DNA from: Angustibacter sp. Root456 | Lineage (GTDB): Bacteria; Actinomycetota; Actinomycetes; Actinomycetales; Angustibacteraceae | Length of the DNA stretch: 64,000 bases | Direction of reading: 5' to 3' | Assembly: GCF_001426435.1 (NCBI RefSeq) | Contig: NZ_LMER01000020.1 | Location: forward strand, 651,985 to 715,984 | Shown: positions 12,301 to 16,901 of the stretch, piece after piece | Layout of the letters: every line of letters starts with the position of its first letter | How positions within the stretch are numbered: position 1 is the first letter of the stretch | The notes under the pieces: model-generated | The model's input: the letters and a program-made list of their open reading frames with translations, nothing else | Database searches by the model: none | What the model was told of the DNA's origin: nothing | Program-made: the position numbers and the translations under genes

Positions 12301-12756
12301 ATGACCGCTGCCCCGCGTGACGTCCCCCCGCGCACGGACTTCACCGTGTGGTGGCCGACGCAGACGCGGTGGGCCGACAACGACCAGTACGGCCATGCCA
12401 ACAACGTCGTCTACTACTCGTGGTTCGACACCGCGGTGAACGGCCTGCTGATGCAACGGCTCGGCAGCGACGTCCGCGACCTGCCGGCGATCGGCGTCGT
12501 CGCGGAGACGTCCTGCCGCTACCTGGCGCAGGTGGGCTTCCCGCAGGCGCTGGAGGTCGGGATCGCCGTCGAGCGGCTCGGCACGAGCAGCGTGACCTAC
12601 CGCCTCGCGGTGTTCCGGGTCGGCGCGGCCGACCCTGCCGCGGTGGGCCGCTTCGTGCACGTGTACGTCGACCCCGGCACGCGGCGTCCGGTGCCTGTGC
12701 CGCAGGCGGTGCGTGACGCGCTCGCCGACCTCACCAGTTCTGCATCGAACGGCTGA
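12301..12756 (+). CDS. hotdog-fold acyl-CoA thioesterase
   Basis: A 151-residue 4HBT/YbgC-type thioesterase that hydrolyses acyl-CoA or acyl-ACP thioesters in the cytosol. The family signature is visible as TRWADNDQYGHANNVVYYSW, with the catalytic Asp in the DNDQYGH segment and the usual Tyr/Trp after it. Length is normal for a single hotdog domain. The substrate chain length cannot be read. A CAGGGT box ends six bases before the ATG, so the transcript is probably leaderless. The 3' end overlaps the convergent dehydrogenase gene by 26 bases. Confidence 0.88.
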   Translation: MTAAPRDVPPRTDFTVWWPTQTRWADNDQYGHANNVVYYSWFDTAVNGLLMQRLGSDVRDLPAIGVVAETSCRYLAQVGFPQALEVGIAVERLGTSSVTYRLAVFRVGAADPAAVGRFVHVYVDPGTRRPVPVPQAVRDALADLTSSASNG

Positions 12757-13999
12757 AGATCGTCGCGAGGTCGTCGGCCTCCACCGGCCGGGGACTGATC
12801 GACAGCAACCGGGGCTGGGCCAGCGACCCCTCGACGAGAGCCGGGACGTCGTCGGCGCCGAACCCCAGCTCGGCCAGCCCGCTCGGCAGCCCGATGTCGC
12901 GCATGAGCTCGGTCAGCGCCGTCGGCAGCAGGTCGACGGCGTCATCGCACCGGACGCCGGGCGCCAGCAGCTCAGCGGCGCGCACGTGCCGGTCGGGGTT
13001 GGCAGAGTAGGTGAAGCGGAACGACTCGGGCGCGGTCATCGCCACCGACATGCCGTGCGGCACGAGGGGCCCGTCGCCGGGGTAGCCCTCGGCGCGGAAC
13101 TCGCGCACCTGGCCCGCCACCGGGTAGGCGTTGGCGTGCGGCACGTGCACACCGGCGTTGCCGAAGCCCAGCCCGGCGAACGTGGCGGCGAGGGCCATGT
13201 CGGTACGCGCGCCGACGTCGCCTCCGTCGGTCACGGCGCGCCGGAACGACTGCGCGAGCAGCGACATGGCGCGCTCCGCCCACATGTCGGAGATGGGGTT
13301 GGCGCCGCAGTAGGGCACCCGCTCGTCAGCCCGCTTGCGCTCGAAGGTCGCGTACGGACGCGCGGTGTAGCTCTCGAGCGCGTGGCACAGGATGTCCATG
13401 CCGGCGCTCGCGGTGACGCCGGCCGGCTGCGACATGGTGAGCTCCGGGTCGATCACCGCGAGCGTCGGGCGCAGCCGCGCGTGGCTGATGCCGGTCTTGA
13501 CCTTGCGGGCCAGCACGTCCAGCACGCACACGGTCGTGGACTCCGCGCCGGTACCCGTCGTGGTGGGAACGGCGACGAGCGGCAGCAGGTCCGTGGGTGG
13601 CGCCTGGCCGTTGCCGATGGGGGCGTTGACGTAGTCCATCAGCTCGCCGGGGGCGCAGAGCATGAGGTTGACCGCCTTGGCGGTGTCGATGCTCGACCCG
13701 CCCCCGACTGCGACCACCCCGTCGACGCGGCTCAGGACACGGGCGTGCTCGACGGCGTCCTGGAGGCTGCGGTCGGTGGGCTCGACGTGGACGTCGGCGT
13801 ACACCTCGACGTCCACGCCGCCGGCGCGCAGCAGGTCGACGATGCGTTCCGGTGCCCCGGTGGCCAGCACGCCCGGATCGGTCACCAGCAGCACGCGCCG
13901 GCAGCCGAGCGCCGCCAGGTCGTGGGCGAGCTCGGCGCTGGCGCCGGGGCCGAACTTCAGGCCGGGGGCGGCGTACGTGAACACGGTCTCGGCGGCCAC
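12731..13999 (-). CDS. hydroxyacid-oxoacid transhydrogenase
   Basis: An iron-containing (type III) alcohol dehydrogenase family protein of about 422 residues, closest by pattern to hydroxyacid-oxoacid transhydrogenase (HOT, ADHFE1). HOT oxidises 4-hydroxybutyrate to succinic semialdehyde while reducing 2-oxoglutarate to D-2-hydroxyglutarate. Visible features are ETVFTYAAPGLKFG at the start, VVAVGGGSSIDTAKAVNL for cofactor binding, PTTTGTGAEST, and the metal-binding region with HALESYTARPYA and VPHGMSVAMTAP; VPHANAYPVAG supplies a further His. I chose the GTG at 13999 because family proteins begin near there; a GTG at 14017 is possible. It is divergent from a FAD/Fe-S dehydrogenase, a probable partner that would oxidise D-2-hydroxyglutarate. 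Confidence 0.85.
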   Translation of the reverse strand: MAAETVFTYAAPGLKFGPGASAELAHDLAALGCRRVLLVTDPGVLATGAPERIVDLLRAGGVDVEVYADVHVEPTDRSLQDAVEHARVLSRVDGVVAVGGGSSIDTAKAVNLMLCAPGELMDYVNAPIGNGQAPPTDLLPLVAVPTTTGTGAESTTVCVLDVLARKVKTGISHARLRPTLAVIDPELTMSQPAGVTASAGMDILCHALESYTARPYATFERKRADERVPYCGANPISDMWAERAMSLLAQSFRRAVTDGGDVGARTDMALAATFAGLGFGNAGVHVPHANAYPVAGQVREFRAEGYPGDGPLVPHGMSVAMTAPESFRFTYSANPDRHVRAAELLAPGVRCDDAVDLLPTALTELMRDIGLPSGLAELGFGADDVPALVEGSLAQPRLLSISPRPVEADDLATIFSRSMQNW

Positions 14000-14060
14000 G
14001 TGCTGAGACTGCCTCACTCCCGCACCCGCGGCAACGGCGGGTGCGACGTAGGCTTCCGCC

Positions 14061-16901
14061 GTGAGCGAGCTCGTCGAGGAACTGCGGCGCGCCGGGGTCG
14101 CGGAGGTCGACGACAGCGAGCTGCGTCGCACGCTCTACTCCTCGGACGCCTCGCTGTACCGCGTCCCGCCTCGAGCGGTGGTGGTGCCGCAGCACGTCGA
14201 CGAGGTCCTCGCCACGATGGAGGTCTGCCGCAGCCTCGGCGTCCCGGTGACCATGCGGGGCGCGGGCACCTCGATCGCCGGCAACGCGGTAGGGGCCGGC
14301 GTCGTGGTCGACGTCTCGCGCCACCTCAACCGCGTGCTGGACGTCGACACCGAGGCGGGGACGGCGCTGGTCGAGCCCGGTGTGGTGCACGCCGCGCTGC
14401 AGCAGCAGGTGCAGCCGTCGGGGTGGCGTTTCGGGCCCGATCCGTCGACTCACAACCGCGCCACCTTCGGCGGCATGATCGGCAACAACGCTTGCGGTTC
14501 GAGGGCTCTGGCGTACGGCCGCACCAGCGACAACGTGCTCGGTCTCGACGTCGTCACGGCCAGGGGTGAGCGGCTCACCGTGGGGCGCCTCGACGGCCGC
14601 ACGCAGGCCACCACGGCCTCGCCGACGCTCGACGCCTTGCGCCGGGTCATCGACGCCGACCTGGCCGTGGTGCGCACGGAGTTCGGCCGGTTCCGGCGTC
14701 AGGTGTCGGGCTACTCGCTCGAGCACCTGTTGCCCGAGAACGGCTTCGACGTCGCGCGGTTCCTCGTCGGCACCGAGGGCACGCTCGCGCTCACGCTGGC
14801 CGCGCGGGTGCGCCTGGTGCGCGATCCCACCCACCGGGTGCTCGTCGTCCTGGGTTACCCGTCGATGGCGGACGCGGCGGACGCCGTCCCGGCGTTGCTC
14901 GAGCACGAGCCCGTCGCCTGCGAGGGGCTCGACCGCCGGATCGTCGACGTCGTGCGTGACCGGCGCGGCCCGTCGGCGGTGCCCGACCTCCCGGACGGCG
15001 ACGGCTGGCTGTTCGTGGAGCTCGCTGGTGACGACCCGCGCGCCCTGCAGGACGCCGCCCGTCGCGTCGTCGGCGAGGCGGGGGCGCTGGACGCGCGTGT
15101 GGTCGACCACGCGGGGCAGGCCGCCGCGTTGTGGCGCATTCGCGAGGACGGCGCCGGCCTGTCGGCGCGAACTCCCGCGGGCGAGCCGGCCCACTCGGGC
15201 TGGGAGGACGCCGCCGTCCCGCCCGACCGCCTCGGGGACTACCTGCGCGAGTTCGACGACCTCATGGCGGGGTACGGGCTCGACGGCCTGCCGTACGGCC
15301 ACTTCGGTGACGGCTGCGTGCACATCCGCATCGACTTCCCGTTCCGCTCGGGCACGCGCGTGTTCCGCGACTTCATGCTGGACGCCGGAAGGTTGGCCGC
15401 CGCGCACGGGGGCTCGATGTCGGGGGAGCACGGGGACGGCCGCGCCCGCAGCGAGCTGCTGCCGCTGATGTACTCCCGCGAGGCCATCGCGCTGTTCGGC
15501 CGGGTCAAGACGGTGCTCGACCCCGACAACCTGCTGAACCCCGGAGTGGTCGTCGACCCCCTGCCGCTCGACGCCGACGTCCGCGTCGCCCACGCGCCGC
15601 CGTACCGGCAGTCGCTCGGTCTGGCGTACCGGCACGACCGGGGCGACCTGTCGATGGCGGTGCACCGGTGCACCGGTGTCGGCAAGTGCCGGGCCGACAC
15701 CACCGGCACCGGCGGCGTCATGTGCCCGTCGTACCTCGCCACCAAGGACGAGAAGGACACCACGCGCGGGCGCTCGCGCGTGCTGCAGGACGCCGTCGCC
15801 GGCCACCTCGGCCCCGACCCCTGGCGGTCGGAGGCGGTGCACGACGCGCTCGACCTCTGCCTGTCGTGCAAGGGCTGCTCGTCAGACTGCCCCACCGGCG
15901 TCGACATGGCGTCGTACAAGGCGGAGTACCTGCACCAACGCTGGCGCGGCCGGCTGCGCCCGCGCTCGCACTACGCGCTCGGGTGGCTGCCGCGCTGGAC
16001 CCGGCTCGTCGCCCGCGTGCCGGGGCTCACCCGGCTGGCCAACCTCATGATGCGCGTGCGGCTGGTGCACCCGCTCGTCACCTGGGCGGCCGGCGTCGAC
16101 GCGCGCAGGTCGCTGCCGACGTTCGCGCCGCACACCTTCCGCCAGTGGTTCGCCTCGCGCGAGGCGCCATCGCGCCCTGCCCGGCACGGCGACGTCGTGC
16201 TGTTCGTCGACACCTTCACCGACGCGTTCTCGCCCGACGTCGGCCAGGCCGCGGTGGCGGTGCTCGAGGACGCCGGCTACCGCGTGCGCGTCACGAGCGA
16301 GCCGGTCTGCTGCGGGCTCACGTGGGTGTCGACGGGCCAGCTCGACGGCGCTCGCAAGCAGGCGTCGGCGACGGTGCAGGCGCTGCTGCCGCACGTGCGC
16401 GGCGGGGCTGCCGTGCTGGGCCTGGAGCCGTCGTGCACGGGGGTGCTGCGCTCCGACGTCCTCGAGCTGCTGCCGGACGACGAGCTGGCCGCCGCCCGCG
16501 AGGTCGCGGACGCCACGGTCACGCTCGCCGAGCTGCTGCGCCGGACGCCGGACTGGTCGCCGCCCGATCTCGGTGGCGAGCGCGCGGTCGCCCAGCCGCA
16601 CTGCCACCACCACGCCGTGATGGGGTGGCAGGCCGATGCGGCGCTGCTCGACGAGGCCGGCGCCGACGTCCAGCGCCTCGGCGGCTGCTGCGGCCTCGCC
16701 GGCAACTGGGGCGTCGAGCGCGGGCACCACGAGACGTCGGTGGCGGTGGCCGAGACCCAGCTGCTGCCCGCCGTGCGTGAGCTGGGCGACGGCGGCGTGG
16801 TGCTCGCCGACGGCTTCTCGTGCCGCACCCAGCTCGACGACCTCGCGTCGCGGCAGGGCGTGCACCTCGCCCAGCTCCTCGCCCGCCACCTCTCCCGTTG
16901 A
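14061..16901 (+). CDS. FAD/Fe-S 2-hydroxyacid dehydrogenase (YdiJ/GlcD-like)
   Basis: A 946-residue fusion of a GlcD-like flavin domain and a GlcF-like iron-sulfur domain. The FAD_binding_4 domain (about 35-210) shows TMRGAGTSIAGNAVG and ATFGGMIGNNACGSRAL. The FAD-oxidase C domain includes YGHFGDGCVHIRIDFP and GGSMSGEHGDGRARSE. Two 4Fe-4S clusters are indicated by the cysteines in CTGVGKC and VMCPSY, and by CLSCKGCSSDCPTG. Two CCG (heterodisulfide-reductase-type) motifs are VCCGLTWVS and LGGCCGLAGNWG. E. coli YdiJ, with this architecture, is a D-2-hydroxyglutarate dehydrogenase; D-lactate is an alternative substrate. A TAGGCT box ends six bases before the GTG start, so it is probably leaderless. 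The stop codon is formed by the first bases of repeat R3. Confidence 0.9.
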   Translation: MSELVEELRRAGVAEVDDSELRRTLYSSDASLYRVPPRAVVVPQHVDEVLATMEVCRSLGVPVTMRGAGTSIAGNAVGAGVVVDVSRHLNRVLDVDTEAGTALVEPGVVHAALQQQVQPSGWRFGPDPSTHNRATFGGMIGNNACGSRALAYGRTSDNVLGLDVVTARGERLTVGRLDGRTQATTASPTLDALRRVIDADLAVVRTEFGRFRRQVSGYSLEHLLPENGFDVARFLVGTEGTLALTLAARVRLVRDPTHRVLVVLGYPSMADAADAVPALLEHEPVACEGLDRRIVDVVRDRRGPSAVPDLPDGDGWLFVELAGDDPRALQDAARRVVGEAGALDARVVDHAGQAAALWRIREDGAGLSARTPAGEPAHSGWEDAAVPPDRLGDYLREFDDLMAGYGLDGLPYGHFGDGCVHIRIDFPFRSGTRVFRDFMLDAGRLAAAHGGSMSGEHGDGRARSELLPLMYSREAIALFGRVKTVLDPDNLLNPGVVVDPLPLDADVRVAHAPPYRQSLGLAYRHDRGDLSMAVHRCTGVGKCRADTTGTGGVMCPSYLATKDEKDTTRGRSRVLQDAVAGHLGPDPWRSEAVHDALDLCLSCKGCSSDCPTGVDMASYKAEYLHQRWRGRLRPRSHYALGWLPRWTRLVARVPGLTRLANLMMRVRLVHPLVTWAAGVDARRSLPTFAPHTFRQWFASREAPSRPARHGDVVLFVDTFTDAFSPDVGQAAVAVLEDAGYRVRVTSEPVCCGLTWVSTGQLDGARKQASATVQALLPHVRGGAAVLGLEPSCTGVLRSDVLELLPDDELAAAREVADATVTLAELLRRTPDWSPPDLGGERAVAQPHCHHHAVMGWQADAALLDEAGADVQRLGGCCGLAGNWGVERGHHETSVAVAETQLLPAVRELGDGGVVLADGFSCRTQLDDLASRQGVHLAQLLARHLSR

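What the first reader, a model, noticed from the sequence alone, without database searches (positions are those of the whole stretch)
12731..16901. Divergent HOT and YdiJ-like genes suggest a self-contained D-2-hydroxyglutarate cycle
HOT makes D-2-hydroxyglutarate while oxidising 4-hydroxybutyrate. The large FAD/Fe-S protein has the same domain order as E. coli YdiJ, which oxidises D-2-hydroxyglutarate. Back-to-back genes 61 bases apart could run the cycle together: 4-hydroxybutyrate to succinic semialdehyde with electrons passed to the respiratory chain through 2-hydroxyglutarate. The specificity of both proteins is inferred from family.
Basis: partly seen in the sequence, partly recalled or inferred. 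Interest (0 to 1): 0.65.

Follow-up and report, generated by a model that had tools for sequence, protein, structure and literature searches.

The report
Bacterial hydroxybutyrate oxidation via hydroxyglutarate shuttle
Two back-to-back bacterial genes most likely form a small redox loop in which 4-hydroxybutyrate is oxidised by passing its hydrogen to 2-oxoglutarate, and the resulting 2-hydroxyglutarate, known in people as a disease and cancer metabolite, is at once re-oxidised; the same pair recurs in many actinobacteria, often in gene clusters that make or use 4-hydroxybutyrate.

Summary
A HOT-type iron alcohol dehydrogenase, complement(12731..13999), and a 946-aa FAD/Fe-S protein, 14061..16901, stand back to back 61 bp apart. 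HOT carries both inserts that define its subfamily. The flavoprotein has YdiJ's domain order but is only 28% identical to E. coli YdiJ and fails its NCBIfam cut-off; it does share an active-site Arg (R423, at human D2HGDH Asn443) with E. coli YdiJ: 89 of 89 YdiJ-type rows, 0 of 6 hand-picked distant paralogues. The pairing recurs: 25 of 80 other HOT loci have the flavoprotein downstream on the same strand; in a 396-genome sample 31 of 41 HOT genomes carry it, 18 within 20 kb. Neighbours (two lactonase types, succinate-semialdehyde dehydrogenases, plasmids of ether degraders) point to 4-hydroxybutyrate. Best reading: 4-hydroxybutyrate + 2-oxoglutarate -> succinate semialdehyde + D-2-hydroxyglutarate, which the flavoprotein re-oxidises to the respiratory chain. 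Substrates and electron acceptor are inferred. Animal precedent: C. elegans HPHD-1/DHGD-1; no bacterial report found in my paper searches.

The parts
12731..13999 (-). HOT-type (cd08190-like) iron-containing alcohol dehydrogenase, 422 aa, GTG start
13307..13357 (-). HOT insert 1, 17 residues, absent from E. coli FucO
   Evidence: definition in PMC5125639
13064..13102 (-). HOT insert 2, 13 residues, absent from FucO and from 9 of 9 other non-HOT relatives aligned
   Evidence: definition in PMC5125639
14061..16901 (+). YdiJ-like FAD/Fe-S D-2-hydroxyacid dehydrogenase, 946 aa; predicted D-2-hydroxyglutarate dehydrogenase
14169..14582 (+). FAD_binding_4 domain (residues 37-174)
14826..15548 (+). 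FAD-oxidase_C substrate domain (residues 256-496), with R361, H414, H421, E456, H457
15327..15329 (+). codon of R423, at the place of human D2HGDH Asn443 (binds the C5 carboxylate); Arg also in E. coli YdiJ
15660..15902 (+). Fer4_8 iron-sulfur domain (residues 534-614)
16221..16448 (+). CCG cysteine-rich domain (residues 721-796)
14000..14060 (.). 61-bp divergent promoter region; holds a 9-bp inverted repeat 14021-14045 that is not found in G001
12301..12756 (+). 4HBT_2 acyl-CoA thioesterase whose end overlaps the HOT end by 26 bp (convergent); homologues lie in operon with HOT in Deinococcus and Planosporangium and with a plain Fe-ADH plus SSADH in Rhizobium

Best explanation
The module oxidises 4-hydroxybutyrate without releasing NADH. 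HOT (probably with tightly bound NAD) moves a hydride from 4-hydroxybutyrate to 2-oxoglutarate, giving succinate semialdehyde and D-2-hydroxyglutarate. The YdiJ-like flavoprotein oxidises D-2-hydroxyglutarate back to 2-oxoglutarate and passes the electrons through FAD and its iron-sulfur/CCG half to the respiratory chain, which pulls a reversible step forward and removes a harmful by-product. Succinate semialdehyde goes to succinate through an SSADH. Front ends that supply 4-hydroxybutyrate differ by lineage: in the window a thioesterase (from a 4-hydroxyacyl-CoA), elsewhere lactonases or ether-degrading clusters. Shown here: gene identities, subfamily marks, repeated linkage, pathway neighbours, an SSADH candidate next to a GABA aminotransferase in the same genome. 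Inferred: substrates, direction, bound NAD, electron acceptor, co-expression.
For: (1) HOT: both defining inserts (17 and 13 residues), Fe ligands D210, H214, H296, H323; 111 HOT rows form one clade with SH-aLRT 100 against 10 non-HOT Fe-ADHs (quick tree). (2) Flavoprotein: the catalytic set of human D2HGDH (R386, H434, H441, E475, H476) is present, and R423 replaces Asn443 exactly as in E. coli YdiJ, which is strictly specific for D-2-hydroxyglutarate. Arg in 89 of 89 YdiJ-type rows; Met/Leu in 6 of 6 distant paralogues that I picked. (3) Linkage: 25 of 80 HOT loci have the flavoprotein downstream on the same strand, 20 of them within about 130 bp; divergent in the window's family; same cluster 0.9-18.5 kb apart in 14 genomes of family f35, with a flavoprotein of a separate clade. 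Co-occurrence 31 of 41 HOT genomes against 53 of 355 others, Fisher 1.9e-15; without the 23 f35 HOT genomes 12 of 18, 2.5e-6 (relatedness not corrected). (4) Pathway context: G189/L200 has SSADH-like, SDR, HOT, AttM lactonase (409.7 bits, cut-off 390) and flavoprotein on one strand; a second lactonase type precedes HOT in 8 of 80 loci, and in G002 of the window's family; 3 loci hold lactonase + HOT + flavoprotein. Mycobacterium dioxanotrophicus plasmid: SSADH (819.5 bits, cut-off 730), HOT and flavoprotein overlapping by 4 bp. R. ruber YYL plasmid: monooxygenase cluster, HOT, flavoprotein. (5) Thioesterase: overlapping operon with HOT in Deinococcus taeanensis; with Fe-ADH and SSADH (717.8 bits, cut-off 646) in Rhizobium. 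(6) Own genome: SSADH-like 572 bits divergent from GABA aminotransferase 620 bits (cut-off 507).
Against: The flavoprotein fails the YdiJ equivalog cut-off (412 vs 1350), and by sequence and fold its nearest solved relatives are lactate dehydrogenases (mLDHD rank 1; human D2HGDH rank 22). Human D2HGDH's Lys401 and Thr390 are missing (Trp, Ala), though E. coli YdiJ lacks them too. The flavoprotein is commoner than HOT: 53 of 84 genomes with it have no HOT at the threshold used, and 10 of 41 HOT genomes lack it, so it must have other work, and HOT other partners. 55 of 80 HOT loci show no adjacent flavoprotein (some are cut by contig ends). The window's genome has no AttM-like lactonase and no PhaC, so its source of 4-hydroxybutyrate is unknown. 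The own SSADH candidate is below the family cut-off (572 vs 646). No promoter-like site was found.
Confidence: 0.7

Rival explanations
1. Same two-enzyme shuttle, different hydroxy acid: HOT oxidises 3-hydroxypropionate (propionate shunt) or another hydroxy acid released by the thioesterase, as HPHD-1 does in C. elegans.
For: The C. elegans HOT orthologue HPHD-1 couples 3-hydroxypropionate to D-2-hydroxyglutarate (isotope tracing). The window has a thioesterase and no lactonase, which fits any hydroxyacyl-CoA.
Against: Lactonase and SSADH neighbours in the same HOT family, a lactonase even in the window's own family, fit a C4 gamma-hydroxy acid. The thioesterase's Rhizobium homologue sits with SSADH.
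Confidence: 0.13
2. The two proteins are not a cycle: HOT is an ordinary NAD-dependent hydroxybutyrate dehydrogenase, and the flavoprotein clears D-2-hydroxyglutarate made by SerA, sharing only regulation.
For: YdiJ in E. coli has that role. The flavoprotein is found without HOT in 53 of 84 genomes. HOT has the NAD-type Asp at the coenzyme position, and Rhizobium has a plain Fe-ADH in the same slot.
Against: No reason then for tight linkage with HOT in several arrangements with two flavoprotein clades, or for linkage inside lactonase/SSADH clusters.
Confidence: 0.12
3. The flavoprotein oxidises D-lactate, glycolate or another monocarboxylic 2-hydroxy acid and is neighbour to HOT for another reason.
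For: Closest solved structures are lactate dehydrogenases; Lys401 is not conserved.
Against: R423 groups it with E. coli YdiJ and against lactate dehydrogenases and the distant paralogues, which have hydrophobic residues there.
Confidence: 0.05

Closest known systems
C. elegans HPHD-1 / DHGD-1 (PMC10096224; passages and section 8 read)
   Same: HOT orthologue makes D-2-hydroxyglutarate while oxidising a hydroxy acid; a separate D2HGDH recycles it
   Different: Animal, 3-hydroxypropionate; here the recycler is an FAD/Fe-S protein and the genes are linked
Mammalian ADHFE1 (HOT, cd08190; PMC5125639, passages and sections 11, 12, 14 read)
   Same: Both subfamily inserts, metal ligands
   Different: Activity proven there; the 2016 paper calls the activity in non-animal organisms unknown
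E. coli / Pantoea YdiJ (PMC9504171; abstract and Results read)
   Same: FAD_binding_4, FAD-oxidase_C, Fe-S, CCG order; Arg at the Asn443 position
   Different: 28% identity, below the NCBIfam cut-off; in E. coli it clears SerA-made D-2-hydroxyglutarate and has no HOT beside it
Agrobacterium blcABC (attKLM) gamma-butyrolactone operon (PMC5924552; passages read)
   Same: Lactone to 4-hydroxybutyrate to succinate semialdehyde; AttM lactonase also beside HOT in f35 and Deinococcus
   Different: HOT plus flavoprotein in place of the blc dehydrogenase; the window itself has a thioesterase and no lactonase
Achromobacter dhdR-d2hgdh operon (PMC8651671; passages read)
   Same: Bacterial D-2-hydroxyglutarate catabolic unit with a GntR regulator
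   Different: D2HGDH without adjacent hydroxy-acid genes, no HOT

Membership tests
HOT subfamily (cd08190) | Insert between helices 5 and 6 (19 residues in human) | tested here: met
   17 residues P223-C239; also partly present in 4 of 10 non-HOT rows, so not exclusive
HOT subfamily (cd08190) | Insert between helices 8 and 9 (13 residues in human) | tested here: met
   13 residues E308-L320; absent in 10 of 10 non-HOT rows
HOT subfamily (cd08190) | Metal ligands Asp/His/His/His and GGGS motif | tested here: met
   D210, H214, H296, H323; GGGS at 107-110
HOT subfamily (cd08190) | One clade apart from other Fe-ADHs | tested here: met
   111 HOT rows, SH-aLRT 100, quick tree with few non-HOT rows and no animal sequence
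HOT subfamily (cd08190) | Transhydrogenase activity with bound NAD | not testable with these tools
   needs purified enzyme
YdiJ D-2-hydroxyglutarate dehydrogenase (NF049975) | NCBIfam equivalog cut-off 1350 bits | tested here: not met
   412.4 bits
YdiJ D-2-hydroxyglutarate dehydrogenase (NF049975) | Domain order FAD_binding_4, FAD-oxidase_C, Fe-S, CCG in one chain | tested here: met
YdiJ D-2-hydroxyglutarate dehydrogenase (NF049975) | Active-site residues as in E. coli YdiJ, incl. Arg at the Asn443 position | tested here: met
   R361, H414, H421, R423, E456, H457; that this Arg binds the C5 carboxylate is inferred
YdiJ D-2-hydroxyglutarate dehydrogenase (NF049975) | Strict activity on D-2-hydroxyglutarate | not testable with these tools
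   needs assay
Human-type D2HGDH | Lys401, Thr390, Asn443 for the C5 carboxylate | tested here: not met
   Trp, Ala, Arg
blcABC-type lactone operon | Lactonase gene in the unit | tested here: not met
   no AttM-like lactonase in the own genome; one is present in G002 of the same family

The most novel reading that the evidence does not exclude
D-2-hydroxyglutarate is a dedicated catabolic hydride carrier in bacteria. A HOT + YdiJ-like core replaces the NAD-dependent 4-hydroxybutyrate dehydrogenase step and is combined with interchangeable front ends (thioesterase, two lactonase types, ether monooxygenases) across Actinomycetota, with HOT-lactonase and HOT-thioesterase operons also in Deinococcota, so that 4-hydroxybutyrate oxidation is driven by the quinone pool rather than by the NAD pool.
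Probability: 0.5. Interest if true: 0.72.

Novelty: new variant of a known kind. Interest (0 to 1): 0.6.

Why it matters
The role of HOT outside animals was stated as unknown in 2016 (PMC5125639), and a physiological role for D-2-hydroxyglutarate production and recycling was shown in C. elegans in 2023 (PMC10096224). Bacterial operons that hold producer and recycler together make the question directly testable with deletions, and they offer enzymes for 4-hydroxybutyrate and gamma-butyrolactone catabolism that would not depend on free NAD. They also suggest how a harmful metabolite can be a useful carrier when its recycler is made with it. My searches of the held papers gave no report of this bacterial pair; most subscription journals are not in that library.

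Tried and rejected
Considered and rejected: (a) the flavoprotein as a true YdiJ: rejected on the NCBIfam cut-off; (b) a conserved operator in the 61-bp gap: the 9-bp inverted repeat of the window is not in the G001 gap, so no claim is made; (c) E. coli's ydiJ-menI neighbourhood as a parallel to the window's thioesterase: E. coli MenI gave no BLAST hit to it; (d) promoter/terminator scan: nothing found; (e) AttM-like lactonase or PHA synthase in the own genome: none. The AlphaFold model of the flavoprotein (pLDDT 82.7) is weak at the active site (residues 456-459 under 50), so it was used only for fold comparison.

Rows dropped: the row L225_para (a short own-genome homologue that did not align at the active site) was left out of the R423 count, and L224 gave no row; the six distant paralogues were picked by hand from the ~30% class. 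In-58 matches with broken frames or under 75% coverage did not enter the trees, and duplicates of one physical locus were merged. Co-occurrence thresholds (1e-90, 1e-150) were chosen once and not varied. Gap sizes are between ends of BLAST matches, so they can be off by a few codons.
Full report
What is in the window. The window lies in an actinobacterial genome of 3.84 Mb (the named HOT relatives found are actinobacteria). HOT is complement(12731..13999) with a GTG start; the flavoprotein is 14061..16901, so the gap is 61 bp. Pfam gives Fe-ADH plus ADH_Fe_C for the first, and FAD_binding_4, FAD-oxidase_C, Fer4_8 and CCG for the second. A third gene, a 4HBT_2 thioesterase at 12301..12756 on the + strand, runs into the end of HOT with a 26-bp overlap.

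Is the first protein a HOT? The subfamily is defined by two inserts (PMC5125639, section 3.8.1). Aligned with E. coli FucO, the window protein has 17 extra residues at the first place and exactly 13 at the second; the 13 other HOT rows in that alignment have both, and 10 of 10 non-HOT rows lack the second (the first is partly present in 4 of the 10). Metal ligands and the NAD-type Asp are in place. In a quick tree 111 HOTs form one clade. The plasmid records name the 42-63% identical relatives hydroxyacid-oxoacid transhydrogenase (7 of 7 records); that label is loose, since the Natrinema protein lacks the second insert.

Is the second a D-2-hydroxyglutarate dehydrogenase? It is 28% identical to E. 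coli YdiJ over nearly its full length and does not reach YdiJ's cut-off, so it is not filed as YdiJ. YdiJ itself is strictly specific for D-2-hydroxyglutarate (PMC9504171). In human D2HGDH, Arg386, His434, His441, Glu475 and His476 handle the common hydroxy-acid part; Thr390, Lys401, Tyr432 and Asn443 hold the C5 carboxylate, and these are replaced by hydrophobic or small residues in lactate and glycolate enzymes (PMC7801405, passages). The window keeps the first set. At the Asn443 position it has Arg423, as E. coli YdiJ does; Lys401 and Thr390 are lost in both. Arg is there in 89 of 89 YdiJ-type rows (window, E. coli, 87 others) and Met or Leu in 6 of 6 hand-picked ~30% paralogues. That the Arg reads the far carboxylate is an inference from position. 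Against this, overall sequence and fold are nearest to lactate dehydrogenases.

Is the pairing real? In the window's family the genes are divergent in the window's genome and in G001; the short contigs of G002 and G003 show the same, in G002 with a lactonase gene between. Of 80 HOT loci fetched from named genomes (the best 80 of 535, chosen by likeness to the window's relatives), 25 have the flavoprotein downstream on the same strand, 20 within about 130 bp, a few with touching ends. The flavoprotein tree puts most of these with the window, while the f35 partners form another clade. In a sample of 396 genomes of the phylum, HOT (E <= 1e-90) is in 41 and the flavoprotein (E <= 1e-150) in 84; 31 have both. 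Among the 31, 18 have them within 20 kb (5 within 1 kb), 2 on one contig over 500 kb apart, 11 on different contigs. Fisher's test does not correct for relatedness; without the 23 f35 HOT genomes it is still 2.5e-6. In G002 the HOT at this site falls in another HOT subclade than the window's, which hints at replacement in place; support is from a quick tree only.

What is the substrate? The neighbours point one way. In f35, HOT is followed by an AttM-type lactonase (14 of the 27 loci newly fetched), and in G189 one strand carries SSADH-like, SDR, HOT, lactonase (409.7 bits, cut-off 390) and flavoprotein. In G118 an SSADH-like gene (642.7, cut-off 646) touches the flavoprotein start. A different lactonase type precedes HOT in 8 of 80 named loci and in G002; three loci (L067, L102, L130) have lactonase, HOT and flavoprotein in a row, with a divergent GntR/FCD regulator. 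AttM is the gamma-butyrolactone hydrolase of Agrobacterium blcABC (PMC5924552, passages). On a plasmid of Mycobacterium dioxanotrophicus PH-06 (a dioxane degrader, PMC5578833, text as shown) SSADH, a transporter, HOT and the flavoprotein (4-bp overlap) stand together; on R. ruber YYL plasmid pYYL1.1 HOT and the flavoprotein lie beside a monooxygenase cluster. That YYL degrades tetrahydrofuran, whose breakdown runs through 4-hydroxybutyrate, is recalled and comes from no call. In Deinococcus wulumuqiensis HOT is followed by AttM (461.6 bits). In the other annotated plasmid loci that I opened, R. pseudokoreensis has SSADH and a transporter near HOT but no YdiJ-like gene beside it, and Natrinema has neither.

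The thioesterase. The window's thioesterase has a 73% identical copy at the same place in G001, and 61-63% identical ones directly upstream of HOT on the same strand in two Planosporangium loci. In Deinococcus taeanensis a 47% identical one overlaps the end of HOT by 4 bp; in two Rhizobium plasmids one lies between a plain Fe-ADH without HOT inserts and an SSADH (717.8 bits, cut-off 646). So in this slot HOT and ordinary Fe-ADHs seem to replace each other, and a C4 hydroxyacyl-CoA is the likely thioesterase substrate. Of the five thioesterase plasmid hits that I opened, one (Tsukamurella) has no Fe-ADH beside it.

The own genome. It has an SSADH-like gene (572 bits, below the cut-off of 646) divergent from a GABA aminotransferase (620 bits, over its cut-off) on contig 18, no AttM-like lactonase and no PhaC. 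Succinate semialdehyde can therefore probably be used; where 4-hydroxybutyrate comes from is open.

Mechanism and standing. An animal precedent is shown in C. elegans with 3-hydroxypropionate (PMC10096224, passages and section 8), which is also the main rival substrate. I rate the cycle at about 0.7. Novelty: a bacterial variant of a known enzyme couple, with a different recycler protein and with gene clusters that name the pathway; no report was found in the paper searches.

Noticed in passing
L067, L072, L073, L080, L089, L127, L137 (just after HOT); L036 1104-1493: A small FmdB-like zinc-ribbon gene follows HOT on the same strand in 7 of 80 loci and in G002, mostly where a lactonase precedes HOT. 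The name FmdB is recalled; no role known to me.
   Followed up: no
L198, L199, L201, L202, L203: In family f35 HOT stands near class III PHA synthase genes (PhaC 404 bits in L202, cut-off 365), suggesting a tie between 4-hydroxybutyrate and polyester storage.
   Followed up: partly
L210 1131-2921, L211 2836-4629: A thiamine-diphosphate enzyme (PRK08273 type, 1008 bits in L211) lies just before HOT-unlinked YdiJ-like genes in two families.
   Followed up: partly
L207 8374-9891: Glycerol kinase (748 bits, cut-off 590) directly follows a HOT-flavoprotein pair.
   Followed up: no
Blastococcus loci such as L076 5218-7920: HOT is divergent from an AMP-forming acyl-CoA ligase and a putative cyclase family protein in several Geodermatophilaceae.
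   Followed up: no
window 14021-14045: 9-bp inverted repeat with 7-bp spacer inside the 61-bp divergent promoter region; not seen in G001's gap.
   Followed up: partly
L075, L085, L100, L142: In the Nocardioides albus/luteus group HOT lies between a TauD-type dioxygenase and an MFS transporter.
   Followed up: no
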